Virus record (IMG/VR): IMGVR_UViG_3300027796_000011
Location: 1 to 41,849 of that record
DNA: 41,849 nt
DNA from: a virus
Reading direction: 5' to 3' (one strand)
Shown here in pieces: positions 2,957-38,306 of the stretch. Below the pieces are notes generated by a model. The model had not been told where the DNA came from, searched no databases, and was given only the letters and a program-made list of their open reading frames with translations. A program made the translations under genes and the position numbers. Every line of letters begins with the position of its first letter. Positions within the stretch are counted from its first letter, which is position 1.

Positions 2957-3830
2957 TACTGGCAGCGGTGATAAAAAGATTATTGACCGGGTGTTGCGGT
3001 TTCCTTGGGAACTCATAGATTCAACGCATGTGTGGGGTGGGACGGATGATAAAGAGGTTATCACAAAGATGCTGGCGGTGTCTGGGGTTTCTGATGCTTG
3101 TCTTGAACCACTCGTTAAGAACACAGCGAGGTTCGCTCAGATAGCCATTCCGAATATCTTGATGTTGAACAACAGTAGGAATCCTATCCTGGCATACAGG
3201 AACTTCTGGCGTAACCTCCCGCTTAGTCGGGAGATCGACAGACCTACGGATGTTTTGGGGCCGGAACTCACACAGGATGAACAGTACACAGTGATGCGTG
3301 CGTACAAGTTTGATGCACCGTACCGCACTGTGTTTCATTTTGCGAAGGACAAGGAGTCTGTTGATAGCCTTGCCAGTTACATTGTCGGGACGGCTATGCT
3401 GACTTCCTATGTCTGCTGCTTGTCTACGACTGTGGGCAACGCTTTTGATGTGAGCCGTGATAACTCCTTTTCACAGCAACCCCTAGAAGAGTTTGAAGCC
3501 TTGAGGCGTACCCCCATGTTGGTGCTGACTGATCTTGTAGACGGCACTAAGATATCCGGTGATAGATTTGAAAAGGGATATGGCACCTTGAGTTCCTTGT
3601 TATATGACCGCTATCATAACGGACGTACCACTGTGTTCATTGATGATGTGGCATGGCCTTTAATTGCTGATCCTGATGAGGGGGCACCCCGCTTTGACAT
3701 GCAAGGTATCAAGGCAATCACAGATGAATGGCCTGCTATTTTGAAGAAGTATCTCATGGACACACGAACCCGCATCCATTGCGATTTGGACAAGAAGTCG
3801 AACAAGGGGGTTTGGCATGTCAGTCGGTAG
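2949..3830 (+). CDS. DnaC-like helicase loader, degenerate ATPase
   Basis: This 293-residue protein starts at ATG 2949, overlapping the previous stop by eight bases. A Walker-B-like strand (TPMLVLTDLVD) is followed by SSLLYDRYHNGRTTVFIDD, which is the DnaC/IstB arrangement of acidic strand, helix with arginines, then strand. No GxxxxGKT loop can be seen where the P-loop should be; the region around IVGTAMLTSY is where it would align. It could therefore be a helicase loader that has lost ATP binding. The immediate downstream neighbour is the DnaB-like helicase, which fits a loader role. Function is inferred from fold-level resemblance and gene order. Confidence 0.5.
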   Translation: MSNTGSGDKKIIDRVLRFPWELIDSTHVWGGTDDKEVITKMLAVSGVSDACLEPLVKNTARFAQIAIPNILMLNNSRNPILAYRNFWRNLPLSREIDRPTDVLGPELTQDEQYTVMRAYKFDAPYRTVFHFAKDKESVDSLASYIVGTAMLTSYVCCLSTTVGNAFDVSRDNSFSQQPLEEFEALRRTPMLVLTDLVDGTKISGDRFEKGYGTLSSLLYDRYHNGRTTVFIDDVAWPLIADPDEGAPRFDMQGIKAITDEWPAILKKYLMDTRTRIHCDLDKKSNKGVWHVSR

Positions 3831-5385
3831 ATACTTCCTTCAATCTTTATTGCAGGGATCAGATTCCAAAGCAAAGAAAGCACGGTTTCTTCAGTCCAAA
3901 CTCGATGGGGTGGATGAGAACGCTTTTGAACGTGTTGAAGAGCGTGACGCATTTACATACTTGAATGAGTTCTTTGAACAGTATGGTGTCCTCCCTTCTA
4001 TCAATGTTGCACAAGCGGATACTGGTATTATTTTCACCGCAGCGGAACTTGAAGAGCCTTTTGAGTTCTGGTGTACTGCTTTGAAGGAATATCGTAAGGA
4101 AACGCTGATTGGTGATTTGGTTGCGGAGGCATCCCGCCTGCATATTGAGGGTAAAGTTGATATCCGCAACAAAAAGATAGAAGAGGCTTTGGAAGTTCTG
4201 CGTAATTTCGGGGAGGGCAAGAAGCACATCAAGAAATTGAGTGAACTTGTCCCAGAGATTATGGAGAGACACAACGCCATTCGCAGTAACGAGCGTGTGA
4301 CTGGTGTTCGTTTTGGGCTTCCATATCTGGATGGTTTGACCGGAGGTGGGCAGGCATCTGACCTATGGGTCATTGCCGGTAACACAGGATCAGGTAAGAC
4401 CTTCTTGCAGTGTCGCATGGCCCTTGGTGCTGTGATGGGTAGGAAGCCTGAACATTTTTTTGTGGGGATGGAGAACCTTCCCGAAATCTTTGAGCGTCGG
4501 CAGATTGGTCGGTTGCGGGAAGGTGAAGAACTGGAGACTTGGGAACCAGCTACAGCACTTTTCATTTCAATGGAGATGTCGAATCTTCAGATCGCTTCCA
4601 GGGCATTGTCCCTCGGGACTCTGACCAGTGGGACGCAGTTACGTCGTGGTGAGATGACCATGTTTTCTGAGCAATTCATTCAGGAGTTCAGTTCTCGTTG
4701 GAAGGCGTGCGGGGTGGACGAACGCCTGATTCTCATCGAAGGTAATATCAACATGACGGTGAACGATGTCTTATACTATATCCGTCAGTACCGGCCAGCT
4801 ATCGTGTTTGTTGATGGTGCTTACCTCCTCAAGATGAAGGGCGGGCATGGTGATAAGCAGTGGGAGAGGATTTCAGAAATCTTGGAATTGTTGAAACGTA
4901 TAGCGATGGCGGAACAGATTCCTATTATTTGCACCTTCCAGTTTAACCAGAAGGCCAAAGACCAGCAGGTTCACGACATCATGGGTGGTCAGGCCATTGG
5001 TCAGATAGCCTCTGTCATCATTAAAATATCTGACGACACTGAGGACATGACCGGGAAGGCGTTTACAGTAGCCGATATGGATGCCAAAGTCGCTACCCTG
5101 CTTAAAGGGCGTTCAGGTGAAAGAGGCCAGATCAAGTTGTTGTACAACATGACATCCACGCAAATCACAGAGACATCTGTCAGTGGTACGTCTGTTGACT
5201 TCGAGATGCAGACGCGGGGGGCAGACCCTATGCAGGCATTTGTATCCAGTAATCGTCCAGACGATGCCGATGACTTCATCATTGACATTCCAGAAGTTAG
5301 GAGTACCGATGATTCCAATACGGGTAGCCCTAATAGTACGTCCTCTTCCGGGGAACGGACACTTTCTAGTTTGTTAAGGCCCTAA
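3817..5385 (+). CDS. DnaB-like replicative helicase
   Basis: This 522-residue RecA-fold hexameric helicase would unwind DNA at the phage fork. The Walker A motif GNTGSGKT is at about residues 187-194, ISMEM at 250-254 and Walker B IVFVDG near 329-334. A later FQFNQKAKD segment fits the motif H3 region, and GQAIGQIAS resembles motif H4. Residues about 205-245, between Walker A and the ISMEM strand, form an extra charged segment of roughly 33 residues that DnaB lacks. The last 50 residues are low-complexity Ser/Thr/Asp. ATG 3817 overlaps the previous stop and has AAGGGGG upstream. The N-terminal region is shorter than in bacterial DnaB. Confidence 0.88.
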   Translation: MSVGRYFLQSLLQGSDSKAKKARFLQSKLDGVDENAFERVEERDAFTYLNEFFEQYGVLPSINVAQADTGIIFTAAELEEPFEFWCTALKEYRKETLIGDLVAEASRLHIEGKVDIRNKKIEEALEVLRNFGEGKKHIKKLSELVPEIMERHNAIRSNERVTGVRFGLPYLDGLTGGGQASDLWVIAGNTGSGKTFLQCRMALGAVMGRKPEHFFVGMENLPEIFERRQIGRLREGEELETWEPATALFISMEMSNLQIASRALSLGTLTSGTQLRRGEMTMFSEQFIQEFSSRWKACGVDERLILIEGNINMTVNDVLYYIRQYRPAIVFVDGAYLLKMKGGHGDKQWERISEILELLKRIAMAEQIPIICTFQFNQKAKDQQVHDIMGGQAIGQIASVIIKISDDTEDMTGKAFTVADMDAKVATLLKGRSGERGQIKLLYNMTSTQITETSVSGTSVDFEMQTRGADPMQAFVSSNRPDDADDFIIDIPEVRSTDDSNTGSPNSTSSSGERTLSSLLRP

Positions 5386-5393
5386 GTTTCTAC

Positions 5394-5422
5394 TTGACAG
5401 TTTTAGAACTTGTTGCTATCTT
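5394..5422 (+). promoter_or_regulatory. promoter for the primase
   Basis: TTGACA (5394-5399), a 17-base spacer and TATCTT (5417-5422), right after the helicase stop. It gives the primase and the genes beyond it their own start of transcription. Confidence 0.75.
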
Positions 5423-5458
5423 AGGTATCCCAAACGTGAGAATGGAGGGAACACACAA

Positions 5459-5512
5459 ATGCTGCAAAAACTTTTCAAAATGGTGGGAGTACCGTGGACA
5501 CCAAAGACGTAA
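5459..5512 (+). CDS. possible 17-residue leader peptide
   Basis: An ATG at 5459 follows GGAGGG (5444-5449) at nine bases, a better ribosome-binding site than the primase itself has. It encodes MLQKLFKMVGVPWTPKT and stops at 5510-5512, 19 bases beyond the primase GTG start (5494) in another frame. The layout is that of a coupling leader: ribosomes ending here can restart on the primase. There is no direct evidence that the peptide is made. Confidence 0.4.
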   Translation: MLQKLFKMVGVPWTPKT

Positions 5513-6582
5513 AGACTTTCTTGGAACATGCCGGTCTGAAGAACATTCAGATCGACCAGGACCGGGGGTGGGTTCGTGCCAGTTGTCCTTTTGCTCCGTA
5601 CAAGCATCAGAAAGGTACGGACTCCAACCCCTCCTTTGGGGTGAGGGTTCCTGATGAGGAGGTCAAGACTCCGTATTATACCTGTCTGTCTTGTGACTCT
5701 TCTGGGAGCCTCCCCGCCCTGGTGGCATCATTGCAGTTTCTTACTGGCAAGTCTTTGCGGGAAGCCAGTCTGTATATACAAAGTTTTCCAGAGGCATTCC
5801 CGTTCAATGAAGCGAACGGTGAGCATAAGAAAAAGCGTGTCAAGGTTGATAAGTACCTTGATGTGTATGAGCAGGAAAGGCACAACAATGTTCCCATCCC
5901 GCAGAAGACATTGGATAACTACCCATTGATTTGGGAGATAGACTCCGCTGCGGCAGAGGAGGCCAAGGATTACTTGAAGAGTCGAAAGATTTCAGAGCAG
6001 GTTGTTAAGGATTACCAGTTGCGCCTTTACGTTGACTATCTTGGGCGGGTGGGAATCATTACTCCCATCATGGCACAGAGCGGGAAAGACACATTAGACC
6101 TGTGGGTTAGGATGGTAGCCTCTAAGAGGTTCTTCAGGCTCACAGCAGAGATGACAGGATGTGTTGTCAACTATAAGGCCACAGGGAAGTGGTTCGGTCA
6201 GCAGTATTTGGGACAGAGCCAGACGGTCATCCTGGTGGAGGGGGCGTTTGACCTCCTACGCTTGGTGTCCATCGTTCCCAATAGGGATAAGGTGGTGGTG
6301 CTGGCATCTTTCGGGATGCCTTCCAAGGAACAGATTGATGGACTATACGCAACCAACGTGTTCGTGGGTTTCGATGCGGATGATGCCGGGAAGGCTATGG
6401 CAAGTAAGGTTATTCGTAATATAACGGTTCCGTTTCTGGCCGTACTGTATTGGGACTTGGTTGGGGTTAAGGATGCCGGTGATCTTTCGGATTCCAGCCA
6501 GTTCGTCAAGGTGTACAACGGGATGATTCATATCGACAAGAAGACCTTCACTGATGTTGAAAATCTTAAAAAATCTTCTTGA
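5494..6582 (+). CDS. DNA primase with zinc finger and Toprim domain
   Basis: This 362-residue DnaG-type primase makes RNA primers for lagging-strand synthesis. The N-terminal zinc site is C31, H38, C64 and C67 (CPFAPYKH and CLSC), with the family's NPSF after it. The Toprim domain shows ILVEGAFD with catalytic E249, then VVVLASFGMP, then FVGFDADDAG with D294 and D296. It is shorter than bacterial DnaG and lacks a separate helicase-binding C-terminal domain. The start is GTG 5494 with GGGAG four bases upstream, overlapping the small leader reading frame. It follows the DnaB-like helicase and probably works with it at the fork. Confidence 0.88.
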   Translation: MDTKDVKTFLEHAGLKNIQIDQDRGWVRASCPFAPYKHQKGTDSNPSFGVRVPDEEVKTPYYTCLSCDSSGSLPALVASLQFLTGKSLREASLYIQSFPEAFPFNEANGEHKKKRVKVDKYLDVYEQERHNNVPIPQKTLDNYPLIWEIDSAAAEEAKDYLKSRKISEQVVKDYQLRLYVDYLGRVGIITPIMAQSGKDTLDLWVRMVASKRFFRLTAEMTGCVVNYKATGKWFGQQYLGQSQTVILVEGAFDLLRLVSIVPNRDKVVVLASFGMPSKEQIDGLYATNVFVGFDADDAGKAMASKVIRNITVPFLAVLYWDLVGVKDAGDLSDSSQFVKVYNGMIHIDKKTFTDVENLKKSS

Positions 6583-11358: not shown

Positions 11359-11712
11359 ATGGACATCTGCAACTATGAAGAACTTTGTGGACTACTGAAT
11401 ATAAGTCCAAGTTCCTTTCGGAGAATGGGGTGGCGTCGGCTGCCCCATTTCTTCGCAGGGGGCGGGAAGGACTTGCGCTCTGCCCGTTTCATGATTAACG
11501 ATGTCATGGCAGTTTTTCAGGAGGAGGCCCATGACAATCGAAGGCTACAAGACCAAAGACGGGCAGCGGTATCGGGCGGTGTTCGAGTTCCAGGGACAAA
11601 GGCACAAGCAAAGAGGATTCCAGACGCAAAGGGAGGCCGACGCCTGGATAGTGGACGAAAGGAGACGCTTAAACTCCGAGATGGAACGGAGCTTGTGCTG
11701 CCACATTTCTGA
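11359..11712 (+). CDS. excisionase-like helix-turn-helix protein
   Basis: This 117-residue reading frame has a convincing first half. CNYEELCGLLNISPSSFRRM is a helix-turn-helix of the HTH_17/AlpA/Xis kind, followed by LPHFF, a glycine-rich turn and a RFMINDVMAVFQ wing end. The last 60 residues overlap the integrase gene by 182 bases and are arginine-rich. Such proteins bend DNA to steer integrase toward excision. ATG 11359 has GAGGA upstream in the end of the recombinase gene. The long overlap means the true C-terminus could be shorter if frameshifting or a sequencing error is involved. Confidence 0.6.
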   Translation: MDICNYEELCGLLNISPSSFRRMGWRRLPHFFAGGGKDLRSARFMINDVMAVFQEEAHDNRRLQDQRRAAVSGGVRVPGTKAQAKRIPDAKGGRRLDSGRKETLKLRDGTELVLPHF

Positions 11713-13836: not shown

Positions 13837-14379
13837 TCAACCTCCTTGTTTCATTCGGATAAACCGAACAGCGTTTTGTTGTTCAATTTCCTTTGGCAAC
13901 GTGATGGTCAACATCTTCTGGTGCGTATCCAACGAGATGGGTTGCGTGTTCAGTAGAAGTTTGTAACTCAAACTGTCCTGTTCCACCACCCCGCTTTCAA
14001 TGACTTCCTTCTTCGTCAGGATACGCCCACGGGTCTTGAAGAACCACTTCTGCTTCCGCACCAGATCGTTGTACGACTTGACCTCTACGGTCTGCGGGCG
14101 GGCAGGAACCTCAAACTTGATGTAGTATGAATACGTCAGTCGAGGTTTCGCAAACTCTGCTTCCAATATGAATATCTTTGCAATAGGGATATCCGTCTCA
14201 AAAGCATACTTCCCAGACACACCAGCGGGCAGGACATCCGGCTTCAGTACCCATCCGTTTTTCTGTGCTTCCCATACCGGGATTTCCTTCCCACCAGAAA
14301 CCAGGAACAGCAGAAACTTTGCTTGCGCTCCAGGCTTGAAGCTGTTCGTCCCACCGTTGTACTCGAAAAAGTATGACAT
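13837..14379 (-). CDS. unknown protein, 180 aa
   Basis: This is the first gene of the small leftward unit. The start MSYFFEYNGG (ATG 14377-14379) was chosen because GGGAGGGAAGG lies just upstream and the promoter covers earlier in-frame codons. Beta-rich first half (KFLLFLVSGGKEIPVW, TYSYYIKFEVP), helical and charged second half. No motif recognised. The strong ribosome-binding site and promoter suggest an early or constitutive product. Confidence 0.7.
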   Translation of the reverse strand: MSYFFEYNGGTNSFKPGAQAKFLLFLVSGGKEIPVWEAQKNGWVLKPDVLPAGVSGKYAFETDIPIAKIFILEAEFAKPRLTYSYYIKFEVPARPQTVEVKSYNDLVRKQKWFFKTRGRILTKKEVIESGVVEQDSLSYKLLLNTQPISLDTHQKMLTITLPKEIEQQNAVRFIRMKQGG

Positions 14380-14439: not shown

Positions 14440-14461
14440 GTTTTTCACATTGACTTCAAAA
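14440..14461 (-). promoter_or_regulatory. dispersed palindrome, site 6
   Basis: On the minus strand TTTTGAAGTCAATGTGAAAA then AC. It lies in the gap between the terminator of the polymerase-portal unit and the -35 of the next promoter, and is nearly identical to site 12. Confidence 0.6.
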
Positions 14462-14490
14462 AAAGCCCACCTTTTTGGGGTGGGCTTCTT
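14457..14490 (-). terminator. intrinsic terminator of the polymerase-portal unit
   Basis: On the minus strand AAGCCCACC (14479-14487) pairs with GGTGGGCTT (14463-14471), with loop CCAAAAA, followed by a run of Ts (14457-14464). It sits six bases past the stop of the last gene of that unit. Textbook form. Confidence 0.88.
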
Positions 14491-14492
14491 GG

Positions 14493-14846
14493 TTACTTCG
14501 CGTTTTCCAGCGTTTGTCGGATGTGGGGTGGAATGTCCAGGGTGATCTTCAGATGTCCTTCAGACATCGCTTCGATCTTGGCAGCAAAGTCCAGAACTGA
14601 TTGCCACCCCCAAGCTACGACATTCGTTTTATCGACACCCTCAACAGCGGACAAGCAGAACTCCGTTTGAGTCCTAACGGTAGCCTTACGCACAGGGGCA
14701 CCGGGCTTGAACTCCCAATCAGGAAACAGCCCTGTGTCGTACTGTTCCATCCCGGTTTCTTGAGGCTCAATCTCTGCCAGGATAGGAGCATCCATCACAG
14801 CCACCTCCTCCACGACATCTTCTTTCACTTTACGCGGCCTTCCCAT
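14493..14846 (-). CDS. unknown small protein after the portal
   Basis: This 117-residue protein starts at ATG 14844-14846, 17 bases inside the portal gene, with GAGGGG upstream. It begins MGRPRKVKEDVVEEVAV, like an AT-hook-style basic start followed by an acidic helix, and later has a conserved-looking tryptophan segment and IPPHIRQTLENAK. Being last in the polymerase-portal unit, it may be a virion or packaging accessory, but I recognise no family. Confidence 0.65.
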   Translation of the reverse strand: MGRPRKVKEDVVEEVAVMDAPILAEIEPQETGMEQYDTGLFPDWEFKPGAPVRKATVRTQTEFCLSAVEGVDKTNVVAWGWQSVLDFAAKIEAMSEGHLKITLDIPPHIRQTLENAK

Positions 14847-16533
14847 CAGTCCCCTCACTAGTTTCGGGTTTATTGCCTTCGTCCTCTCCACCCCCAACAG
14901 CAGGCTCCTGACCTTGAGGATTCTGAGGATCACCTTCGCCTTGACCGTAGATCGTGCCGTAGTTGTAGAGAGACTTGCTGAAAGCAAGCGGGGAGTCCGC
15001 CCACTCTTCATGCTCACCCACATACGGACGAAGTTGTGCATTAAAGTTCTCGTTAAAGAACTCAATGAGTTCATTGGGAGACAGGACACCTGTGTTGACG
15101 ATGTGGGGGAGAAGACCCATAAGGTCAGCATTGGACTTGATAACAGGATCAACGGTGTCAAAAATCCACTCAGAAACGCCAAGGGCTTTTACGATGGTGT
15201 TGTTGATAACGTCATCGAACTTGTTGCGGGCCGGGATGAACACCTGATCTTCTGTGGCGATACGCAGAAGGTTGGCACTCGCGTAGTTCAACCCCGTATG
15301 CTCACCAAGGAACATGGCGGGGAGGCGGAAGCCAAAGGAACGGATAGCCCCCCGGCTGTCTTCGAGATACTTCTGGAAGGTAAGGTCATCCTTGCGGTAT
15401 TCAGTCAAACTGGTGACGTTGAGTTTGGGTGGGGTGTCCTTCCCCTGGAGGTTGAAAGATGTACCAGAGGCTTCCAGCAGCAGGGGCTTATTGAACTTAC
15501 CGATGTCCTCTGTATGGCCCTTCAGCATCGCCAGGAGGTCATTCATGGACTCTTCGGTGAGTTCCCCGCCAGCAATCGTAATCAAGAGGGGCGGGATGCC
15601 CTGCGACTCAAAAAGGTTGTGGTTGATGAAGTCAGCCTTGGTGATACCCATGACATTGAGAAGCGTTCCAATCCAACGTGGGATACCATAAGTACCGTTG
15701 CCGTACTTGAAGTGAATAACCTCAGTAGCATTTTCCCAGACATCATCTGAGTTATCTTTTTCCTCTTCCGTATGCCCGGTAAGAGCATTGATGTTACGCG
15801 GATCACCGAACTCTTTGAAGAAGCGAACGTCCTTCCCTAGAGTACCAGTGACCGCCTTGGGGTTGGAGATGCCCATAACGAACTTACGGAACCTTTTGCG
15901 GGAAGGAATCTTGATGTCCTTCCCATCCCGAGTCACATCCAGCACGATGTTAGTGAAATCACGATCCAAAGGGGTGAGACGCATACGCTTGGCGTCCAGC
16001 CAGAACAGTAGGGTAGGCTCCCCTTTCAGGTTACGCACAACTTCGATGTAACCATTTCCGGTGACACTGTAGTCACGATCCACGAACTCACGCAGGGCAC
16101 TGAAAGACTCCTGCCCATTCGGGCAGTCAAATAGATTCTCCAGTTTCACTTTTTCGGGGTGGGCCTCATACTTCTCAGCGGGAGGGAGGTTATCAACTTC
16201 CGACCCACTTTTAGGCTTGATCTTCCACCCATAACCACCCACGTTGAAAATGAAAGCATCAACACATGCCTGGAGACAGCCACACTCCTCATAGAGTTCA
16301 TACATACGCTCTGGCGAGTACGGGGGCTTCAGGACAAGTTTCGTCTCGTAGTGAGTCTCATAGAAGTCGTCATAGGCAACCTGACGGGAGAAGGCTTTGA
16401 CGCTATCTCCCTGTTTTGAAGTCAACTGCGAAATCTCAGCCATGATCCTTTTCCGAAAAGCGGACTTGTGCTTGGCCTCTTTCAGTCCCTCTTTGAAACC
16501 TTCCGCAAACGGGTCGGTTGTCACTTTTGCCAT
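14830..16533 (-). CDS. portal protein
   Basis: This 567-residue portal forms the dodecameric ring through which DNA enters and leaves the head. Recognised segments are an N-terminal YELYEECGCLQACVDA helix, a central VIHFKYGNGTYGIPRWIGT, then the diagnostic FESQGIPPLLITIAGGELTE and the C-terminal LRIATEDQVFIPARN. These fit the phage portal/PBSX family. The C-terminal 35 residues are Gly/Glu-rich. ATG 16531-16533 was chosen for AGGAG eight bases upstream, which overlaps the DNA polymerase stop; a longer upstream reading lies inside the polymerase. Its place directly behind the polymerase and far from the capsid gene is unusual. Confidence 0.85.
   Translation of the reverse strand: MAKVTTDPFAEGFKEGLKEAKHKSAFRKRIMAEISQLTSKQGDSVKAFSRQVAYDDFYETHYETKLVLKPPYSPERMYELYEECGCLQACVDAFIFNVGGYGWKIKPKSGSEVDNLPPAEKYEAHPEKVKLENLFDCPNGQESFSALREFVDRDYSVTGNGYIEVVRNLKGEPTLLFWLDAKRMRLTPLDRDFTNIVLDVTRDGKDIKIPSRKRFRKFVMGISNPKAVTGTLGKDVRFFKEFGDPRNINALTGHTEEEKDNSDDVWENATEVIHFKYGNGTYGIPRWIGTLLNVMGITKADFINHNLFESQGIPPLLITIAGGELTEESMNDLLAMLKGHTEDIGKFNKPLLLEASGTSFNLQGKDTPPKLNVTSLTEYRKDDLTFQKYLEDSRGAIRSFGFRLPAMFLGEHTGLNYASANLLRIATEDQVFIPARNKFDDVINNTIVKALGVSEWIFDTVDPVIKSNADLMGLLPHIVNTGVLSPNELIEFFNENFNAQLRPYVGEHEEWADSPLAFSKSLYNYGTIYGQGEGDPQNPQGQEPAVGGGEDEGNKPETSEGTDGKAA
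16414..16434 (+). promoter_or_regulatory. dispersed palindrome, site 7 (intragenic)
   Basis: TTTTGAAGTCAACTGCGAAA then T. It lies inside the first 40 codons of the portal gene. Confidence 0.45.
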
Positions 16534-16543
16534 CTGATTGCTC

Positions 16544-19168
16544 CTAGAGTTGATAGTCTTCAAGGGTTGCCAGGGTTTTACCTGTCTGGATATCCGACCC
16601 GAACGGGATGGGAAACTCAATCCCAAATTCTTTCTTAATCGGCGGGTTGACCATGCACTCATACAGGCGGGGTGCAAACGTCGGGATGAAGTCATCCCTA
16701 ACCATGTAGATAAGTTCGTCGTGGATGAAGCAAACCAACTTCGCTTTATCTTCACAGATGTTCTGTCTGTGGGCAGTCAACGCAGAGAACAAAACAGTAT
16801 CATTACTAGCAGACTGAATCGGCGTGTTGATTGCAGCCCGCTCATCTTCAGACCGTTTAGAGAAGTCCTTGGAGTTGATATTAGCAAGCCTACGAATAAA
16901 CCCATAGTCTGTACGGACAAACCCCTGCTCTTTGGCTTTAGCTATTTCGTCTCTATGCCATCCTTCTAGAGCGGGGTAAGCAGTGAAGAACCCTTTTCTA
17001 AAGGCTTCTGCCTCTGCGAGTGTGATCTTAACCCCGTACTCATCACGAGCATATGCTTGCAACTTTTTCGCCTGCATACCGAAGAGCAACCCGAAATTCA
17101 CAGCCTTCGCCTTGGTGCGGTAACTCTTCATCTCAGATGCAGACATATCCTGCGGGTTGCGTCCGTCCATAGCAATCAGCATTTCTGCTGTATGTGTGTG
17201 GACATCTTTGCCCTGCACGTACAGCCCTCGCAGAATCTCATCGAAGGCTCTGACAGCAGCCCAACGCAATTCTGCCTGTGAAGCATCGGCAGTGACGAAG
17301 GAGTAGCCGGGGTCAGCAATAATCAAAGAGCGAATGACATTGGCGATGTCTTTGTTACGCTTGGGAATCTGCTGCAAGTTGGGGTTGGAAACCGCAGTCC
17401 TACCCGTGGCTGTAGCACATTTACTGATGTTGGGATGGAACCGCCCATCAGGAAAGACGCATTTAGGAAAGCCATTGAGATAGGTGGAGTACAACTTCTG
17501 GTATGGTCCCCACTCTATGTAGGTTGAAATCAGTTCCTTGGCGGGATGGTCATCATCCAATTCATCCCGCATACGCACCAGGAGTTTCCGGCCCACCCCA
17601 TCCCCACCGGCAGGGGTCTTCTCCAGAGGATTGAGATTGAAGCCTTCCTTGGAAAACAAAACATCCCGCAGAAGGTCAGTACGAGACAGTTTAAGTCCCT
17701 TCTCCCGCTGGCGTTCAAGAACTTTTCTGGGCATGAGCGAGATGAACTTGTTCGTCTGCTGATTCAGGAAATCTGCCACCTTCTCTTTAGCGGCGGGAAG
17801 GCGTTCCTGGTCGAACAATACACCGTTCTTCTCAATCTCATAAAGCACTTCTGTCGTAACCGGATGCACCAACTTGATGTAGTATTCAGCAAGTCTCATG
17901 TCGGTACACAGACGATCTTTCAAGATAGTTGCACAATCAAAAGTAGAGGCAGTGTCACCACAAGCGTACTGCGAGTGTCTTTCGGGATTCTCTTTTGCAG
18001 CAGCAAGCATGTCAGACTTATCAACTTCCTGTGCAAACTTCGCTTTATGGTCAACACGATAAGGAGCAACTGCGGATTGAATGTCTTGCAAAGATGCTCT
18101 CTTGTACATGTCAGGATCGAGTGTGTGCATCACTGATTGGACATCAAGTGTGTACGCTTTGACTTCCTCCCGCTCAATGCCTAACTGACGAAAACGATGA
18201 AGGTCATAGTTACCGTTCATCATGTACTTTTTGATGGTCGGGTCGGAAAGAATCGTGCGAAGTTCTTCCACCTTTTCATCATAGTGTGCTGCTTTCTTCA
18301 CAAAAACATCAACAAGTTCTTCCTTCCTCCCCACTTTACGGGGCCATTTGATAACAAGTTCATGTTCCCCTTCCACCACCTCTGTAGCCAGCCAGATATT
18401 GTATCCATTGGTCGGGCTGGTACTCACAGAGTACGAAATCACAATGGAGTTGGGGTTGGCGAAGTCCTTCCCCTGCGTCTCCGTGTCCACCGCAACCGCT
18501 TCAGGATTTGAAGCGATTAGAGATTTAATCGACTCAACGTCACGATAATCCAGTTCTCCTGTTTCCATCAACTGATATCCGTTCTTCATGAACTGGAACA
18601 TCTGGGAGATGTCTGGACGCCACTTTGCAAACTGCTTCTGGTCACGGAGGCAGAAACCAGTGGCATACGTTGGCATGACCCAACACTGAAAGTCTTCTGA
18701 ATACTGGAGCATCCCGCGACGTTTGGAGATGCCTGTCTGGTTGAGGACTTGCTTGAAAGCAGTATCCCCAAGGGTGAGGATCATTTTGGGTTGGAGGTGC
18801 TTGAGAACATCATTAACGTAAGGCTTACAATGCTCAAGCACACTCTTCACCAGTTTCTTGTTCTGCTTCTCTTCAATGGTCAGGTGGCAACGGTGAGCAG
18901 GCATGTAATACGCCTTGTTGCCATCAAATCCGTTGGCAGCAAGCTCGTTGGCAAGTACAGTACGCTGATCCCCGGTCATTATTAGGCTCTTAGCCAAGTC
19001 CTCTGCCGATGGCCCGTCAGTCACCACCACAATTTCGGGGTGGTCTGTATTACCGAATCCTTTGAGATTGGTGAACAGACCCTCCCCGACCTTGCGACGG
19101 TATGGACCCAAAACAGGAACCTTCTCTTTTCCGATCTTTTCAAAGAGCGGACATCCCTCGCAGTGCAT
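16544..19168 (-). CDS. DNA polymerase, family A, with N-terminal uracil-DNA glycosylase-like domain
   Basis: This 874-residue replicative polymerase has an N-terminal UDG-like domain with four cysteines (C3, C6, C94, C114) in the iron-sulfur pattern of family 4/5 glycosylases and DGPSAED in the active-site loop. It is followed by a 3'-5' exonuclease (VDTET near 225-229, NYD near 318-320) and a Pol I core. In the core are motif A DASQAEL (near 626), motif B KAVNFGLLFG (near 686-695) and motif C HDE (near 814). Motif A is altered from the usual DYSQIEL. The UDG-PolA arrangement is known from phages such as SPO1. ATG 19166-19168 has AGGAGGG upstream and its own promoter. It is on the strand opposite the other replication genes. 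Confidence 0.92.
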   Translation of the reverse strand: MHCEGCPLFEKIGKEKVPVLGPYRRKVGEGLFTNLKGFGNTDHPEIVVVTDGPSAEDLAKSLIMTGDQRTVLANELAANGFDGNKAYYMPAHRCHLTIEEKQNKKLVKSVLEHCKPYVNDVLKHLQPKMILTLGDTAFKQVLNQTGISKRRGMLQYSEDFQCWVMPTYATGFCLRDQKQFAKWRPDISQMFQFMKNGYQLMETGELDYRDVESIKSLIASNPEAVAVDTETQGKDFANPNSIVISYSVSTSPTNGYNIWLATEVVEGEHELVIKWPRKVGRKEELVDVFVKKAAHYDEKVEELRTILSDPTIKKYMMNGNYDLHRFRQLGIEREEVKAYTLDVQSVMHTLDPDMYKRASLQDIQSAVAPYRVDHKAKFAQEVDKSDMLAAAKENPERHSQYACGDTASTFDCATILKDRLCTDMRLAEYYIKLVHPVTTEVLYEIEKNGVLFDQERLPAAKEKVADFLNQQTNKFISLMPRKVLERQREKGLKLSRTDLLRDVLFSKEGFNLNPLEKTPAGGDGVGRKLLVRMRDELDDDHPAKELISTYIEWGPYQKLYSTYLNGFPKCVFPDGRFHPNISKCATATGRTAVSNPNLQQIPKRNKDIANVIRSLIIADPGYSFVTADASQAELRWAAVRAFDEILRGLYVQGKDVHTHTAEMLIAMDGRNPQDMSASEMKSYRTKAKAVNFGLLFGMQAKKLQAYARDEYGVKITLAEAEAFRKGFFTAYPALEGWHRDEIAKAKEQGFVRTDYGFIRRLANINSKDFSKRSEDERAAINTPIQSASNDTVLFSALTAHRQNICEDKAKLVCFIHDELIYMVRDDFIPTFAPRLYECMVNPPIKKEFGIEFPIPFGSDIQTGKTLATLEDYQL

Positions 19169-19194
19169 ATATTCCCTCCTAGTGTCAAAGGGAT

Positions 19195-19222
19195 AATATA
19201 CATCATTTTCGAGATTTGTCAA
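19195..19222 (-). promoter_or_regulatory. promoter of the polymerase-portal unit
   Basis: On the minus strand TTGACA (19217-19222), a 16-base spacer and TATATT (19195-19200); TATTAT two bases on is an alternative -10 with an 18-base spacer. It is of the same type as the early promoters (compare 6667-6694). Palindrome site 8 lies about 23 bases upstream of the -35. Confidence 0.78.
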
Positions 19223-19245: not shown

Positions 19246-19265
19246 TTTTGAAGTCAACTTCAAAA
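19246..19265. promoter_or_regulatory. dispersed palindrome, site 8, perfect copy
   Basis: TTTTGAAGTCAACTTCAAAA is a perfect 20-base inverted repeat (nine-base arms around CA). It lies one base beyond the stop of the last late gene (19267) and upstream of the polymerase promoter, so a bound protein could stop late transcription and affect the promoter. It is the best-formed member of the family. Confidence 0.65.
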
Positions 19266-19266
19266 A

Positions 19267-30950: not shown

Positions 30951-33900
30951 CTAAGCCTCCGTCAGTTCGGCGGCGTAGTTGGACCGCTCAATGGCTTTGT
31001 TGGTTCTGTAGGTGTGCCCGGCAATGGCCGCTGTGTTATCCACAACCTTACGGGTCAATTCGGCCATGTCCTGATTCATCTGGTAGATAGCAGCCACAAC
31101 ATCTTCACTGCTGCCCCCTGTCATTCCGTTGATCCTGACCGGGATAGCTCCCCCGGACAGGGGCACAATGGCTTCCGGGCCAGCCTCCCCGACTGTAGCC
31201 AGGGTGCGCTCGTACACAATCCCGCCTGTAGCATATTCGGGAAGGTCAACAACAAGGTTCATCCAGTAGTTCAACTGATTCTGGAGGGAGTTGACCTGAT
31301 TCATGATCTGCTGGTATTCCTGCATGTACATCATGAAGGCCATCGGAACACCCATCATCATAGCCATCATAGCCATCTGCTGCTTAGAAGCGGCCTGACT
31401 CTGCAACCCCGCAATAGACTGCGAAAGGGCCTCAATGTTGGTCTGCTTCAGCAGGTAGGTGGAGATAGCCTGGAAGTAACTAGCCATCTGATCGGCAGCA
31501 GCGTTCTGCTCCTCTTCCAAGGCATACAGGCGTTCAGCCTCCTTCCTGCGTTCGGCTATATTCAACTCCAGCCAGGAGATGTACTCTTCCTGCCCGACTT
31601 CGATCTGGTCAATCAGGGCGTCCCACTGCGACTGATCGGTAACACCAGCAGCGATAGACTCCAGTTTGAGAACCATCTTATCGGAGACATCAACATCCTG
31701 CCCGGTGTACTTCTCCAAGGACTCCAACGCATCCACAGAAGACAGCAGCAGTCTGGCCTGATCCTGCGACAAGTTGTCGGTGTTCAACGTACCAGCCAAC
31801 AACTGCTTCAGGTCAGAGGAGGACATCAAATCATTGTACGTTGACTTAGCCAGGGCCTTAAACGAGGCTTCTGTCATGTCTCCTTCAGCGGTGTCCTTGG
31901 CGGCATCGGACATCTTAGCCAACTTCTCAAACAGCGCATTGGCATCGGCCACGAACTTGGAATCCGGGCTGTCCGACTGAAGTTCTTCCTGCACACGAGT
32001 CAGCAAATCAGACTCGTTGGTGTAAAGGTCGCTGGCGACTCCCCCGTACTCACCCTGCAACTCAGAGCGGGTGGCAGCGTTCCCAAGGCGGGAAAGCGTT
32101 CTGGCCTCAAGGACGTTGTAGTCGCTGTACGACATGGTTTTCTTGGCGGATTCCAACATCTTCTCCGCAAGTTCGGGGAGGTTCCCCATGGCCTCTTGGG
32201 CATCCGCACTAAAGTCCTTCATAGCAGTGCTGAAGTCAGTGTTGAACTCTGCACGCGCTTTGGTGAACTTCTCAAGCGGGGTGGTGGTATCTTCTGTGAT
32301 GCTTTCGATAGCATCCCGCAAAGACTTGCCAAAGGCTTCAAACGCGGTAGCCGAAGCAGACGCCTCTGCGGCCAAATCCTGCAACGCGGCTATCTGGTGT
32401 GCAACAGAATCCTTCAGCTTCTTGGTCAGGGAGGTAAGGTCATCCTCATCGCTTTCCTGCCCGCGAAGTTCACGCAGTTTGGCTTCCATCTCATAAATCT
32501 GAGTCTCAACCAGGGCAGCTTGCTGTGCGTAGGTAGCATTGTTCTTGCGTGCATCCGCAAGTTCCTGCTCCATCGTGATAGCCCAACGGGTCATCTCAGC
32601 ACCCGCAGTCTGCTCATCAGCAATCTGCCTACGGTACTTCAGTTCTGCATCCCAAGCGTAGTTGGAGAACTCAATATCAGCCAACGCCTGTTCGGCCTCT
32701 TCCAGGTTGGCGACATTCTGAGCAATCGCAACCCAATCGTCGAAGATCGAGGCAGGCATAGACTCGTTCATCGCCGCAGCATACGCAGCCCAGAAAGCGT
32801 CGGTGTTGTCCCCAATCCAATCCGTGTCAAAATTGGGAAGGAGACTCCCAAGGTCGGTAAGCCCGGAAGTGAACTGCGACTTGTAGTAGTTCACATTGGC
32901 ATTAGCTCTAGCTTCATTCCCCATCGCGTAGTTGGAGAACACGGTCATGGCCTGCTGGAAGGCATCCTCCCCGCCAGCAGCATCAATCAACTGTTCGGAA
33001 TACTGAGCCAGGACGATGTTGGTCAACTGCTTGCGGTACTGCTCAAAGTAACGAACAACTTCAGCACCAGACTCGCCAACGGCCCGAAGGCTATCAGTGA
33101 GTTCGTCCGTGGTGTCCGCTTGGTTCTGCATAGCCTCTGTGATGACACCCACCCCGGCATTAAAGCCGGTAGCAATGGCAGCATAAGACAGGATCACCGC
33201 GTCGGTGGCACCGGCCATCTTGGCTAAGTCGATACCAAGAGGCTCAACCAGGGGGGAGACAGTACCGAAGGCTTTAGCCAACCGAATCAAGGTCTGGTCC
33301 AGGCTTTCCATGCCCTGCTTGAACAACTTGACCATGTAACTCATCTCGCCCATAGCCTGTGCAGCCGCATTGTCCTTCATGTTGTAGGACACCATCGGGG
33401 CCAGTTTATCAGGAACGCCCATAGCCTGGAAGGAGAAGTTACGGTCCCAATTCTGGTTGAAACCGATATCTAACACCTTCATGGACTGATTGATGTCTTT
33501 CACTGTTTTTTTGAAACGCAGGCGTTCCTCTTCCATCTCCATCGGATCAAGACCAGATGTTTGGGTGCTGCCGTCACTCATCTGGGTGACACCAAAACCA
33601 GAGAAAGAGCCGTTGGAGAACATCAGAGACTTACCAGACCACACTTCGGAGGGTGGCTTCTTCTTCTCTTCTTCGGCCATCGAACTGAAAAGGGTCACAA
33701 GGCCACCAACGGCCATCGTTATCCCACCAATTAACTGCCCACCGGGGATCATGGAGATGATGCCACCAGCAGTCATCAACCCGCCCCCAATGCTCTGCAT
33801 GGCGTTACCAGAGGTCAGCCCACCGATGGCTGTACCAGCCCCGGCGGCAACGGCCATCACGTTGGCACCATTGACATTCCAACCGCTACCAGCAGACTTC

Positions 33901-36900
33901 CCACCGTTAGAGAACGCATTGCCGCCATAACCTGCCGTCAGGGTGCTGCGCCCATCATGTGTAGAGTATCCCCCATTATAGAGGGATGTATTGGAACTAC
34001 CCCTCCCCAGGAGGCCAGCTATATCGAAACTACCACCACCAGAACTAGCACCACCTGACGAGGTGGAAGGACTCATGAGAGATGTAAGGCCACTCTTAAC
34101 CCAATTAGCTATGATCTGCTGCACGGCAGAAGCAAAAGAGTCCAGCATGGAAGCCAAGAAACTCTTCCACAGGTCTTCCAGGTTGGCAGTGCCCGCCCCA
34201 AACCCGCGAATCAAATCACCAATCCCAGAAGTCACATTGCTAGAGACATCCTGTGTCAGCCCGATCATGATGTCGGCTGTAGCTACGGCCTCTTCCCGCT
34301 TCCGCGTCTCGTAGGACTTGTAGGTATCAAACTCCAAAGACCAACGGGCACCAGCAGCAGCATCCGGGGAGCCGCGTTTAACTGTGTCCTCAAGACCCTG
34401 GCGTAAGGTATCTTCCTTCCCAAGTTGGGCAAAGGCTTTGAGTTCAGCGTTTCCAGCCCGCTCTGCTTCGGCAATCATCTTGTCATACGCATCAAGGCGG
34501 GAAGACAACATCTGCTTAGAGTTATCTTCAAAGTCTTTCAGGATAGAATCCCAAACGTCCTGTTCACCCTTCCCGCCCGCCTTGGTGAGTTCATCCATCT
34601 TGGCGTTGCTGGCAGCCAACTTTTCGGGGAGGGTGGTCGCAACCTCTTGCAGTTCTTGCAACCGCTTGAGGGTGTTTTCTGAAGTCAACTGCAAAATCTT
34701 GTTCTTAAACAGTTCTGTCTGTTCCGCAGACCACCCCAAAGCCTTGGCAGCCGCATCCAGATTGTCCGTCATGGCCTGAAGGTCTTCAGCCTCTTTAGCC
34801 GAAGGGAACATGCCTTCAAACACGTTCTTATACACAGCGATAGACTTGATACCCTTCTCGTAGGTATTCCAGTATTTCGCTATTTCGGTATCCTGCCCCT
34901 TGATACTGTGGCTCTCTATCTCGCGCTCTTGCTGATTAAATGTCTTCTCGATCTTAGCCATCTGGGACGCAATGTCATTACCAGACAGAGATTCCTGCAA
35001 CACCATAGCGTTGTCACGGATTTTTTCTGTCAACTTCTCGTAAGCATTCTCTTGAAGAGCCGCTGTCTTTGCGCCAGCCTCACCTTTTTTATTGGCGCGG
35101 TCCTGCGCCTCAGCTATGTTTTTAAGGGCACCCTCCCTCTCAGCGTACATAACTTGCACGCCGGTCCAATAGGCTTGTTCATTAACCATCCCCTTTTGAG
35201 CACGAGCATCAAGTGCTGCAAGTTTTTCACCAAACTTCAGCACGGCAGCGTCCGCCTGACTGATATCCCCATAACGAGGCAACTTGCTCAAGTCTATGGA
35301 GGCGTCTCCGTACTTGGCCTTATATGCCTTACTTTCAGCAGAATGGTCTGCCATGTCCTTAGCGAGGGCCGCTTGAGCCTTCTCGACTTCGGATATGGCT
35401 TCCCGCTTGGCGGCTGGAATGTCTTTAACGATCTTTTCCAGGCGTTTAAGGTCTTCCATTGCCTTGGGATCAGCCTTCCCGCCCCGGCGGGCTTCTTCCT
35501 TCGCCATCTCTCTGGCGTTATCCCGCTGAACTTCCAGTTCCTTTATATAGTTAGGATTGTTCAGGAGTTTTAACTGTGCATCGGCCTCCTGCATCTTCAC
35601 TTCTGCGGAGTTTTTAGCCAACTTACCTATGGTAGCGATGAGCAGATTCACCTGACTCATATCAACAGCAGTGTAAATCTGCACCACATACTGCTTTCCG
35701 GTCAACTGCGTGATTAGGTTAGATAACTCATTAACCTTGGTATTGTTTGTTTCGGTGTTTATGCCTTGGGCAGCCATCATTTGGGCTGTCTTGATCTTAT
35801 CGATCAAGTCCTCAATGATTTTCTTTCCCGCTTCAGAAGACCTGAACTGTTCCTGATACTTCTCCAGCCCAGACCCATCCATGTTATTCCCGCGCTGTTT
35901 AGCCCCTTGAAGTTCTTCAATGGTCTTCTTCAACTCCAAAGCGCGTTCCACAGAGTGTTCTATGGTGGACAACTGCTTCTGAGAGTTTTCAATATCCTTG
36001 TTAGATGTGAGTAGAGCCTCCCCCAACATGCTAGTCAGCGGATTGCCAGAAAGCACACCAGCAGTCAGCCCGAGTATGCTCTGACCTGAGATGTCTGAAA
36101 AGTTTGTAACTCCAGTTAAGAGGGCTTTCTTGAGGTCTTTAGTGCGCTCACTCTTTGAGAGGGTTCCGCTGATACCATCAAGAATGGCGGTGGCTATCTT
36201 TGCTCCAACAGACACGAGGTCGGCTAGCGTCTGGTCGTCAGCAAACTTCATGAAACTGTTTTTCATGCGTTCAAGGTTGGCGGTAGCGGTGTCCGCAGCC
36301 TTCTCCCAACCAACCCCAAACTTCTCAAGTTCAGGCACAAACTTTCTCAAAAAGTCGATGGAATCCAGATCGCCTGCTTTCATCAACTCTTTGAACTGCG
36401 CGACAGTAACCCCCATCGCGTCAGCACCCATTTTCATGGCACCGGGGATGCGTTCAGCAAACTGTAATCGAAATTCTTCCGCAGAGACAGTTCCCTTGGA
36501 AATCATCTGAGTCAGAGCGGTAAGGGTTCCCCCCACATCGTCAGAGGAGCCACCCATCTTAACAATGGCAGCGGTGACAGCCTCAAAGATACGTTGAGAC
36601 TCTTTGGCGGACATCCCCACATAGTCAGTAGCCGCAGAAAACTTTCTGTAACCGCCAGCAACAGACTCAATGTCCTTCCCAAACTTATTAGCAGTATCCA
36701 TGACGTAAGTGAGGTGTTTGGCCCCGGCCTCTGCCGAACCAAAAACCCCCTCAAAAGACTTGCGTAATACTTCCATCTTGAGGCTGACGCCAATGATAGC
36801 CCCAGGCATCTGCATGAGGATGTTTAACAAGGTGTAAGCACCAGAATAGAGAGCCGTGTTGGTGAATATCTGGCTGATGGATTTGATGCCAGTGATGCTC

Positions 36901-38306
36901 TTGACGATGTTGTTAAACTTTGTGCCCATGCTGGAGGGATCGGCTTCAGCAGCCTTCAACTCCTGACGGAGTTTTCTAAGGGCGGCTATCTGGCCGTTAA
37001 GGGCCGCGTTGGCGTCCCCACCACTCAGATCGCGGCGGGACAGTCTGCCATAAGCGGCCTCAACTTCGGCCATCTCTTTCTTGATAGCAGAAGCAGAGCG
37101 CCTACCAATAGTGGCCCAATCATCCAAAGGCTTGACAAGAGCCTCCCGCATACCCGAGGACGCCTGCTTGGCAGAAGCAGCGACTTTGGACATGTTAGCA
37201 TCTGCGGCAGCAAAGGCTTTCTGTAACGAGGCTTCTGCCCCGCCGAACATGGAGTCGTAGACAGACGACGCCCCCACATATCCATGCCCAGGAGCAATGG
37301 TCTGCGAGGTGGTTGTCCCGAGATTTTGTGTCTGAATCTGCTTCAGGCGCTCTTGCAGTTGCTTGGCCTGTAACTCCTGACGAGTGATTAAGGCTTGCGC
37401 CTTCCCGCTTGCCTGCTCAATAGCCTTATCCAGATTACCATACATGCTCTGGTAAATGGCTTCGCTGGAGATAGTGCCCTGTCCGTGGGGGGCTATGAAA
37501 TTCGGGCCGGTGGTCAACTCCTTCATAATGCGCTGATTCACCATATCACTGCGCGTGACCAACTCCTGCGCCTTGACTGTGACAGCGTTCAAAGCGCGTT
37601 CCATCGGTCCCCAGAAGGAATTGTACACAGCGTCCGAAGAGACAGACCCCTTACCAGGGGCGATTGTTCCAATCCCCTTACTGGTGAGGTTCTTTGTGCC
37701 AGAGAAAGCGTTAGCTATCTCTTGAGATTTGGTGTAAACTTCAGCAGCCAGCGTGTTGAGTTGGGCGCGAATACCTTCCGTGACTGCCTTTAAGTAGTCA
37801 CTTTTGTGCTCTCCTCCCCGCTTGTTTTTGCCAACAGCGTCCAGAGCCTTGTCCAGGTCAGTGATCTGCTTGATGATCCCAGGCATGTTGCCAGTGTTAC
37901 CAAGGTTCTTGAAAGACCCTTCCAGAGCGCGAACTTGCCCCTGTAGCTTCTGGACGTTACCAGTGAAATGGTTGGTTGTGGCCCCGAAACGGCTGGTCAC
38001 TTCCGAGTTGAATCTGCCCAACTGATCGTAGAAAGACTGAAACCCACGAAGAGCGTTGAGCCTGTTGGTCTGCCGCTCAAGAGCCTGAATGTCCTGCGTC
38101 ATCTTCTGAAGAGTGCTGATGAAACCCTTACCCTTACTCCCATTCTCCAGAGCGTCCATAGCCCCACTAATCCGCTTCGTGGTGTTAGCAAGCGTTTTGG
38201 TAGCCTTCTCGGCCTCCCCGACAGACTTCACATACTGCTGTGCATCCTGCACAACATTCTGCGTACCTGTGGAAGAGAAGGAAACGGATAATTTGGCTAA
38301 ATCCAT
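30951..38306 (-). CDS. tape measure protein
   Basis: This 2451-residue protein sets tail length and is injected with DNA. It is mostly helical. The tape-measure N-terminal domain includes SLKMEVLRKSFEGVFGSAEA, GGYRKFSAA and LTALTQMISKGTVSAEEFRL, around residues 510-630. A Gly/Ala/Met-rich hydrophobic zone (about 1475-1550) could span the membrane, and a C-terminal part has GGIVYERTLATVGEAGPEAI, which is typical of the family. Three related blocks near residues 215-374 are listed separately. ATG 38304-38306 has AAAGGAA. By the usual 0.15 nm per residue a tail of about 370 nm is expected. Confidence 0.9.
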   Translation of the reverse strand: MDLAKLSVSFSSTGTQNVVQDAQQYVKSVGEAEKATKTLANTTKRISGAMDALENGSKGKGFISTLQKMTQDIQALERQTNRLNALRGFQSFYDQLGRFNSEVTSRFGATTNHFTGNVQKLQGQVRALEGSFKNLGNTGNMPGIIKQITDLDKALDAVGKNKRGGEHKSDYLKAVTEGIRAQLNTLAAEVYTKSQEIANAFSGTKNLTSKGIGTIAPGKGSVSSDAVYNSFWGPMERALNAVTVKAQELVTRSDMVNQRIMKELTTGPNFIAPHGQGTISSEAIYQSMYGNLDKAIEQASGKAQALITRQELQAKQLQERLKQIQTQNLGTTTSQTIAPGHGYVGASSVYDSMFGGAEASLQKAFAAADANMSKVAASAKQASSGMREALVKPLDDWATIGRRSASAIKKEMAEVEAAYGRLSRRDLSGGDANAALNGQIAALRKLRQELKAAEADPSSMGTKFNNIVKSITGIKSISQIFTNTALYSGAYTLLNILMQMPGAIIGVSLKMEVLRKSFEGVFGSAEAGAKHLTYVMDTANKFGKDIESVAGGYRKFSAATDYVGMSAKESQRIFEAVTAAIVKMGGSSDDVGGTLTALTQMISKGTVSAEEFRLQFAERIPGAMKMGADAMGVTVAQFKELMKAGDLDSIDFLRKFVPELEKFGVGWEKAADTATANLERMKNSFMKFADDQTLADLVSVGAKIATAILDGISGTLSKSERTKDLKKALLTGVTNFSDISGQSILGLTAGVLSGNPLTSMLGEALLTSNKDIENSQKQLSTIEHSVERALELKKTIEELQGAKQRGNNMDGSGLEKYQEQFRSSEAGKKIIEDLIDKIKTAQMMAAQGINTETNNTKVNELSNLITQLTGKQYVVQIYTAVDMSQVNLLIATIGKLAKNSAEVKMQEADAQLKLLNNPNYIKELEVQRDNAREMAKEEARRGGKADPKAMEDLKRLEKIVKDIPAAKREAISEVEKAQAALAKDMADHSAESKAYKAKYGDASIDLSKLPRYGDISQADAAVLKFGEKLAALDARAQKGMVNEQAYWTGVQVMYAEREGALKNIAEAQDRANKKGEAGAKTAALQENAYEKLTEKIRDNAMVLQESLSGNDIASQMAKIEKTFNQQEREIESHSIKGQDTEIAKYWNTYEKGIKSIAVYKNVFEGMFPSAKEAEDLQAMTDNLDAAAKALGWSAEQTELFKNKILQLTSENTLKRLQELQEVATTLPEKLAASNAKMDELTKAGGKGEQDVWDSILKDFEDNSKQMLSSRLDAYDKMIAEAERAGNAELKAFAQLGKEDTLRQGLEDTVKRGSPDAAAGARWSLEFDTYKSYETRKREEAVATADIMIGLTQDVSSNVTSGIGDLIRGFGAGTANLEDLWKSFLASMLDSFASAVQQIIANWVKSGLTSLMSPSTSSGGASSGGGSFDIAGLLGRGSSNTSLYNGGYSTHDGRSTLTAGYGGNAFSNGGKSAGSGWNVNGANVMAVAAGAGTAIGGLTSGNAMQSIGGGLMTAGGIISMIPGGQLIGGITMAVGGLVTLFSSMAEEEKKKPPSEVWSGKSLMFSNGSFSGFGVTQMSDGSTQTSGLDPMEMEEERLRFKKTVKDINQSMKVLDIGFNQNWDRNFSFQAMGVPDKLAPMVSYNMKDNAAAQAMGEMSYMVKLFKQGMESLDQTLIRLAKAFGTVSPLVEPLGIDLAKMAGATDAVILSYAAIATGFNAGVGVITEAMQNQADTTDELTDSLRAVGESGAEVVRYFEQYRKQLTNIVLAQYSEQLIDAAGGEDAFQQAMTVFSNYAMGNEARANANVNYYKSQFTSGLTDLGSLLPNFDTDWIGDNTDAFWAAYAAAMNESMPASIFDDWVAIAQNVANLEEAEQALADIEFSNYAWDAELKYRRQIADEQTAGAEMTRWAITMEQELADARKNNATYAQQAALVETQIYEMEAKLRELRGQESDEDDLTSLTKKLKDSVAHQIAALQDLAAEASASATAFEAFGKSLRDAIESITEDTTTPLEKFTKARAEFNTDFSTAMKDFSADAQEAMGNLPELAEKMLESAKKTMSYSDYNVLEARTLSRLGNAATRSELQGEYGGVASDLYTNESDLLTRVQEELQSDSPDSKFVADANALFEKLAKMSDAAKDTAEGDMTEASFKALAKSTYNDLMSSSDLKQLLAGTLNTDNLSQDQARLLLSSVDALESLEKYTGQDVDVSDKMVLKLESIAAGVTDQSQWDALIDQIEVGQEEYISWLELNIAERRKEAERLYALEEEQNAAADQMASYFQAISTYLLKQTNIEALSQSIAGLQSQAASKQQMAMMAMMMGVPMAFMMYMQEYQQIMNQVNSLQNQLNYWMNLVVDLPEYATGGIVYERTLATVGEAGPEAIVPLSGGAIPVRINGMTGGSSEDVVAAIYQMNQDMAELTRKVVDNTAAIAGHTYRTNKAIERSNYAAELTEA
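34675..34697 (+). promoter_or_regulatory. dispersed palindrome, site 11 (intragenic)
   Basis: TTTTCTGAAGTCAACTGCAA then AAT. It lies in the middle of the tape measure gene, far from any gene boundary, and could act as an elongation roadblock or be a chance copy. Confidence 0.4.
37185..37664 (-). repeat. three internal repeats in the tape measure protein
   Basis: Residues about 215-254, 271-311 and 337-374 share IAPGxGxxSSxxVYxSMxG, then a helix ending KAQxLxTR in the first two. Periods are 56 and 66 residues. The repeats lie ahead of the canonical tape-measure domain. They may bind the tube or gpG/GT chaperones, which is inference. Confidence 0.8.

What the first reader, a model, noticed from the sequence alone, without database searches (positions are those of the whole stretch)
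14830..19168. Portal gene in an operon with DNA polymerase
The polymerase has its own sigma70-type promoter (19195-19222), and the portal starts ten bases after the polymerase stop, its ribosome site overlapping that stop. A terminator follows at 14457-14490. The portal would be made from an early-type unit, some 24 kb from the capsid, connector and tail genes, which lie upstream in the late unit. Portal genes normally sit next to terminase and protease. An early portal would nucleate procapsids before capsid protein appears.
Basis: seen in the sequence. Interest (0 to 1): 0.7.

Follow-up and report, generated by a model that had tools for sequence, protein, structure and literature searches.

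The report
Displaced portal gene behind DNA polymerase
In this 106-kb tailed phage the only gene for the portal (the gate through which DNA enters the virus head) sits directly behind the DNA polymerase gene and far from the other head genes; the same order already exists in sequenced Vibrio phages, and the sequence suggests it is switched on with the virion genes rather than early.

Summary
PolA (16544-19168, -) and the portal (14830-16533, -) are adjacent, the portal start codon lies ten bases after the polymerase stop, and a Shine-Dalgarno overlaps that stop. A promoter and a terminator flank the unit, which also holds a third small gene. The portal is single-copy in the 106-kb record (near-identical 165-bp end repeats); TerL is at 83.7-87.0 kb, protease at 46.5 kb, capsid at 42.5 kb. 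So there is no second portal. The gene order is not unique. PolA directly precedes the portal in two deep clades of related phages, including Rhizobium, Rhodobacter and Vibrio isolates. In Vibrio phages (Ares1, VHS1, 29Fa.3, PG28, 1.215.A, KarBoss) and contig G001 the pair also lies 32-50 kb from the capsid gene. A published phage, R21Y, has it too. The 'early portal' reading is not supported. Near-consensus sigma70-type promoters occur genome-wide. The polymerase promoter belongs to a six-member subclass (TTGACA-N15/16-TATATTA) that also precedes the protease/capsid/tail unit and the TerL unit, not the small-ORF class. No convincing terminator separates the tail genes from the polymerase. The likeliest reading is a displaced portal expressed with virion genes, its dose perhaps limited by coupling to PolA. 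Expression timing was not measured.

The parts
14830..16533 (-). portal protein gene (567 aa), only copy in the 106-kb record
   Evidence: phrog_12 E=3.7e-30, PF04860 above cut-off, one match in the record, portal fold in PDB search
16544..19168 (-). family A DNA polymerase (874 aa) with 3'-5' exonuclease and N-terminal uracil-DNA-glycosylase-like domain
   Evidence: PF00476, PF03167, PF01612
16531..16548 (-). junction: TAG stop overlapped by AGGAG Shine-Dalgarno, ATG of the portal 10 nt after the stop
   Evidence: sequence
19193..19222 (-). promoter TTGACA-N16-TATATTAT upstream of the polymerase (subclass A)
19246..19266 (.). palindrome TTTTGAAGT-tg-ACTTCAAAA just upstream of the promoter; its half-site TTGACTTC recurs about 25 times in the genome
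14493..14846 (-). third gene of the unit (117 aa, unknown), overlapping the portal end; homologue in L009 (40%)
14457..14490 (-). intrinsic terminator closing the unit; comparable hairpin and T-run at the same place in L009
14409..14436 (-). promoter of the next unit (gene 13837-14379); a similar promoter at the same place in L009
19267..19542 (-). fiber-tail adaptor-like gene (PF23148), directly upstream of the polymerase promoter: virion genes run up to PolA
30951..38306 (-). tail tape measure gene, in the same-strand unit upstream
40164..41739 (-). neck/connector genes (tail completion/Neck1 at 40164-40772, head-tail adaptor Ad1 at 41140-41739)
3817..6582 (+). DnaB-like helicase and primase genes lying next to each other; relatives with PolA away from the portal have PolA between them

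Best explanation
This is a real displaced portal gene. An ordinary portal protein is encoded in a PolA-portal-small-gene cassette at the far 3' end of the long minus-strand virion unit (protease - scaffold - capsid - connectors - tail - lysis - fibres - PolA - portal). The most likely working is as follows. The cassette is switched on together with the head/tail and terminase units, through a shared promoter subclass and probably also by read-through of the late transcript. The portal is translated by ribosomes that finish PolA and re-start at the overlapping Shine-Dalgarno, so portal output follows PolA output and stays low. That suits a protein needed in about 12 copies per virion, against hundreds of capsid subunits. 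Shown: gene order, single copy, shared promoter subclass, absence of a convincing separating terminator, the same order in relatives. Inferred: timing, translational coupling and the dose argument.
For: Single portal and distant TerL, protease and capsid genes. Six TTGACA-N15/16-TATATTA promoters in the genome against 0.0 expected from a Markov model; they include those of pol-portal, protease/capsid/tail and TerL. The AACAAAT start motif of the other class is in 17 of 21 of those and 0 of 6 of these; chance that the portal, capsid and TerL units all fall in the six is about 0.002-0.007 (classes were defined after seeing the sites, and the 21 were hand-picked). On the minus strand between 47.1 kb and 14.5 kb only two weak in-gene terminator candidates were found. 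PolA-portal junctions of -1 to 31 nt in 16 phages or contigs of both clades. Portal-capsid separation of 32-50 kb in Vibrio phages and G001. Published phage R21Y lists MCP ORF58, TerL ORF94, PolA ORF104, portal ORF105 (PMC10671443). A homologous portal was detected in DLP3 virions by mass spectrometry (PMC7326821).
Against: No transcript or protein data were available. The TATATTA subclass also precedes PhoH, an unknown gene (6763-7581) and the unit at 47.5-51.7 kb, so it may mark middle rather than late genes. The promoter upstream of PolA is not found in relatives, so its role is lineage-specific. Re-initiation on the polymerase mRNA cannot be told from independent initiation by sequence. 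Two hairpins inside genes (41650, 27439) could attenuate read-through.
Confidence: 0.6

Rival explanations
1. One reading: PolA-portal is an early unit with its own promoter; portal rings accumulate before the capsid protein and nucleate procapsids.
For: Own near-consensus promoter; polymerases are usually early or middle genes (general knowledge); in phages with PolA far from the portal, PolA sits in the replication module.
Against: The promoter subclass is shared with the protease/capsid and TerL units and differs from the small-ORF class. The promoter is absent upstream of PolA in relatives. Virion genes run up to the promoter with no convincing terminator.
Confidence: 0.12
2. Neutral relic: PolA and the portal became neighbours in an old rearrangement and the order is simply inherited; neither timing nor dose matters.
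For: The arrangement follows two clades of the portal tree with few changes. AU tests do not reject a single origin (portal p=0.40, pol p=0.10). Many phages of the group do without it.
Against: The pair stays together, with tight junctions, in lineages where the portal has separated from protease and capsid.
Confidence: 0.25
3. Artefact: chimeric assembly, or the real portal lies elsewhere.
For: The window comes from a metagenomic virus record.
Against: Identical order in contigs from other samples and in a 74% relative; only one portal in the record; the model folds as a portal.
Confidence: 0.02

Closest known systems
Vibrio siphophages of the VHS1/Ares1/R21Y group (MG720309, JF713456, OP547478, MG592585, MT735630, PQ758715)
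   Same: PolA directly before the portal (junction -1 to 4 nt), portal 32-50 kb from the capsid gene
   Different: PolA lacks the UDG-like domain region; portal about 30% identical; portal followed by a ParB-like or head-morphogenesis gene and a methyltransferase; no promoter directly before PolA in the two tested (Ares1, 1.215.A)
Rhizobium phages RHph_TM16 and RHph_Y1_11, Rhodobacter phage RcZahn
   Same: PolA directly before the portal
   Different: protease, scaffold-type gene and capsid follow the portal directly, so the portal is not displaced. Stenotrophomonas DLP5 is similar, but with three small ORFs (about 1.7 kb across the record ends) between PolA and portal
IMG/VR contigs L009, L018, L019, L098, L099 (G001), L101
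   Same: same clade in portal and pol trees; PolA (UDG-like domain confirmed in L009, L018, L101) directly before the portal; in G001 the capsid gene is 37.6 kb away
   Different: in L018, L099 and L101 a Mu F-like minor head gene follows the portal (in L099 after one intervening gene), which the window genome lacks; no promoter before PolA in those tested
Rhizobium phages RHph_I4, P11VFA/L338C, Agrobacterium JP1, Rhodobacter RcDurkin
   Same: homologous UDG-type PolA; homologous portals found in I4, L338C, P11VFA and JP1
   Different: PolA lies behind the DnaB-like helicase in the replication module (with primase just downstream in I4, P11VFA and RcDurkin); where checked (I4, L338C, JP1) the portal lies with protease and capsid

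Membership tests
phage portal protein (PF04860 / phrog_12) | profile match above the curated cut-off | tested here: met
   47.6 against 39.1 bits; phrog_12 E=3.7e-30
phage portal protein (PF04860 / phrog_12) | portal fold | tested here: met
   PDB matches are portals of phage 812, GTA, SaPI1, HK97, T5; model confidence moderate, pLDDT 70
phage portal protein (PF04860 / phrog_12) | dodecameric ring in virions | not testable with these tools
   only a homologue, DLP3 gp1, is reported in virions (PMC7326821)
family A DNA polymerase | PF00476 match with motifs A, B and C intact | tested here: met
   E=3.5e-66; DASQAELR, KAVNFGLLFG and IHDELIY read from the sequence
PolA-portal gene pair of Vibrio/Rhizobium-type phages | PolA stop within about 35 nt of the portal start, same strand | tested here: met
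   10 nt here; -1 to 31 nt in 15 others
PolA-portal gene pair of Vibrio/Rhizobium-type phages | single common origin of the pair | tested here: inconclusive
   trees show two clades, AU p=0.40 and 0.10
displaced portal (portal far from protease and capsid) | no portal beside protease/capsid or TerL anywhere in the genome | tested here: met
   record ends repeat
early transcription unit | promoter of the class used by early genes | tested here: not met
   promoter is of the subclass shared with head and TerL units; that the small-ORF class is early is itself an inference
early transcription unit | transcripts appear before head gene transcripts | not testable with these tools
   no expression data

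The most novel reading that the evidence does not exclude
The polymerase-portal linkage is functional: tying portal synthesis to replication polymerase synthesis sets the number and timing of procapsid start sites relative to genome copies, and selection for this keeps the pair together even when the portal leaves the head gene cluster, possibly gained twice.
Probability: 0.15. Interest if true: 0.7.

Novelty: new member of a known kind. Interest (0 to 1): 0.36.

Why it matters
Head genes of tailed phages are usually treated as one block. Here is a phage group, including cultured Vibrio phages, in which the portal has left that block but stayed with PolA. It can be used to ask how portal dose and timing are set and whether one-portal-per-head assembly depends on operon position. 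The cultured relatives make the test practical.

Tried and rejected
The terminase search with PF03237 hit only the DnaB helicase weakly, because TerL is split by an intein; relatives' TerL found it. The terminator tool did not list the 14457-14490 hairpin; a folding scan did. A search of bacterial genomes found no portal relative. An alignment request failed on a stop codon. Claiming two independent origins of the pair was rejected because AU tests do not exclude one. The VHS1 genome paper is not held. No paper found discusses the PolA-portal order; PMC11348598 on polymerase swapping does not describe a polymerase-portal pair in the passages found. My first guess that the Ares1 methyltransferase-annotated gene was the protease was wrong: the protease is at 5.7 kb there.

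Full report
What is there. The window is the first 41.8 kb of a 106,007-base virus record whose ends share a 165-base repeat with one mismatch, so it is probably a complete phage genome. On the minus strand lie PolA (16544-19168), the portal (14830-16533), a 117-aa gene (14493-14846) and a terminator. The portal is supported by profiles and by fold. The junction ctcTAGGAGcaatcagATG puts the Shine-Dalgarno across the polymerase stop.

No second portal. A profile search over the whole record finds one portal. The capsid gene (42529-43458) and protease (46521-47078) lie at the head of the same minus-strand unit. TerL is at 83679-87029, interrupted by an intein. So the portal is 26 kb from the capsid gene, 30 kb from the protease and 67 kb (34 kb across the joined ends) from TerL.

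Contigs and relatives. IMG/VR contigs L007 and L008 are 100% identical over their overlap and give the same order; L009 at 74% keeps PolA-portal-117-aa gene with a terminator and next promoter at the same places. A survey of 80 IMG/VR portal relatives shows protease and/or capsid downstream of the portal within the locus in most cases, and PolA directly or closely upstream in a minority. The closest PolA relatives L018, L019, L098, L099 and L101 all have PolA directly before the portal. In G001, the record of L099, capsid is at 49.6 kb and portal at 88.1 kb on the same strand.

Cultured phages. PolA directly precedes the portal in Rhizobium RHph_TM16 and Y1_11 and Rhodobacter RcZahn, each followed by protease and capsid. 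It also does in Vibrio Ares1, 29Fa.3, 1.215.A, PG28 and VHS1 by annotation (in 1.215.A the polymerase is annotated only as a ribonuclease H-like protein), and in KarBoss by homology. In these Vibrio phages the capsid gene is 32-50 kb from the portal. The R21Y paper lists MCP ORF58, TerL ORF94, PolA ORF104 and portal ORF105 without remark in the passages read (PMC10671443). So the displaced arrangement is already in public records. I found no discussion of it in the literature I could search.

History. The portal tree puts PolA-adjacent phages in two clades separated by well-supported branches, and the polymerase tree agrees. The AU tests do not reject a single origin (p=0.40 and 0.10), so one old arrangement with losses is as possible as two gains. 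In phages with PolA elsewhere (I4, P11VFA, RcDurkin, JP1) PolA follows the DnaB-like helicase, with primase just downstream in the first three. In the window, helicase (3817-5385) and primase (5494-6582) are neighbours. This fits PolA having moved out of the replication module, but the direction of change was not tested.

Is it early? Near-consensus sigma70-type promoters lie upstream of genes all over this genome. Two kinds can be told apart. Six sites are TTGACA-N15/16-TATATTA: 6667(+), 19222(-, pol-portal), 47148(-, protease/capsid/tail), 51787(-), 51841(+, PhoH) and 89009(-, leading through two genes into TerL); a first-order Markov model expects none. The many promoters of the 53-81 kb small-ORF region have CATACT, CATAAT or TAGGAT and mostly a downstream AACAAAT, which none of the six has. 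The polymerase promoter thus groups with head and packaging units. The classes were drawn up after looking, and the subclass also serves genes of unknown timing. Between 47.1 and 14.5 kb on the minus strand the folding scan finds only two in-gene candidates before the final terminator, and a fiber-tail adaptor-like gene lies directly before the promoter, so late read-through into PolA-portal is plausible. In the relatives tested no near-consensus promoter precedes PolA. Early portal synthesis is therefore not supported, though only expression data can settle it.

How it probably works. I think the cassette is expressed with the virion units, and that portal translation follows PolA translation, keeping portal low relative to capsid. 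The order, junction, promoter subclass and lack of a convincing separating terminator are shown; timing, coupling and dose are inferred.

Verdict. Real, well-placed observation; ordinary portal and ordinary PolA in an unusual order that other phages share; interpretation of early synthesis not supported.

Noticed in passing
record G000 83679-87029 (-), outside the window (L004): TerL carries an intein of about 447 aa (84981-86321) just before a CLDEVNF (Walker B-like) motif. Inside it an overlapping 377-aa ORF in another frame (85046-86179) has a ROS/MucR-type zinc-finger match and a weak phage endonuclease I match, and looks like a homing endonuclease. The TerL frame stays open through it, which 0 of 2000 synonymous shuffles reproduce. 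An overprinted endonuclease inside an intein deserves its own look.
   Followed up: partly
whole record; for example 14436, 19222, 47148, 69921, 72431: About 40 promoters share an extended pattern (c[tg]c TTGACA .. CC[tc][ag]GAAA ..), many with an upstream gaagtcaatgtgaaaaa element; the 8-mer TTGACTTC occurs about 25 times on both strands against about 3 expected. It looks like a genome-wide operator or regulator system.
   Followed up: partly
16544-19168; L009, L018: The PolA has an N-terminal UDG-like domain, weak in the window (36.5 bits) and strong in L018 (77.7 bits); L009 PolA also carries an intein with a LAGLIDADG domain.
   Followed up: partly
record G000 98257-101070 (-): Ribonucleotide reductase large subunit with a short intein-like insert (weak Hint_2 match).
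   Followed up: no
record G000 43482-44441 (-): HNH endonuclease gene inserted in the head unit between the capsid gene and a tail-tube-like gene.
   Followed up: no
11531-12583 (+): Tyrosine-type integrase (phrog_1, E=4e-42) in a phage with a full replication set, beside a UvsX/RecA-like gene; the phage may be temperate.
   Followed up: no
7652-7728 (+): Single tRNA-Thr gene (anticodon TGT) just before a helicase gene.
   Followed up: no
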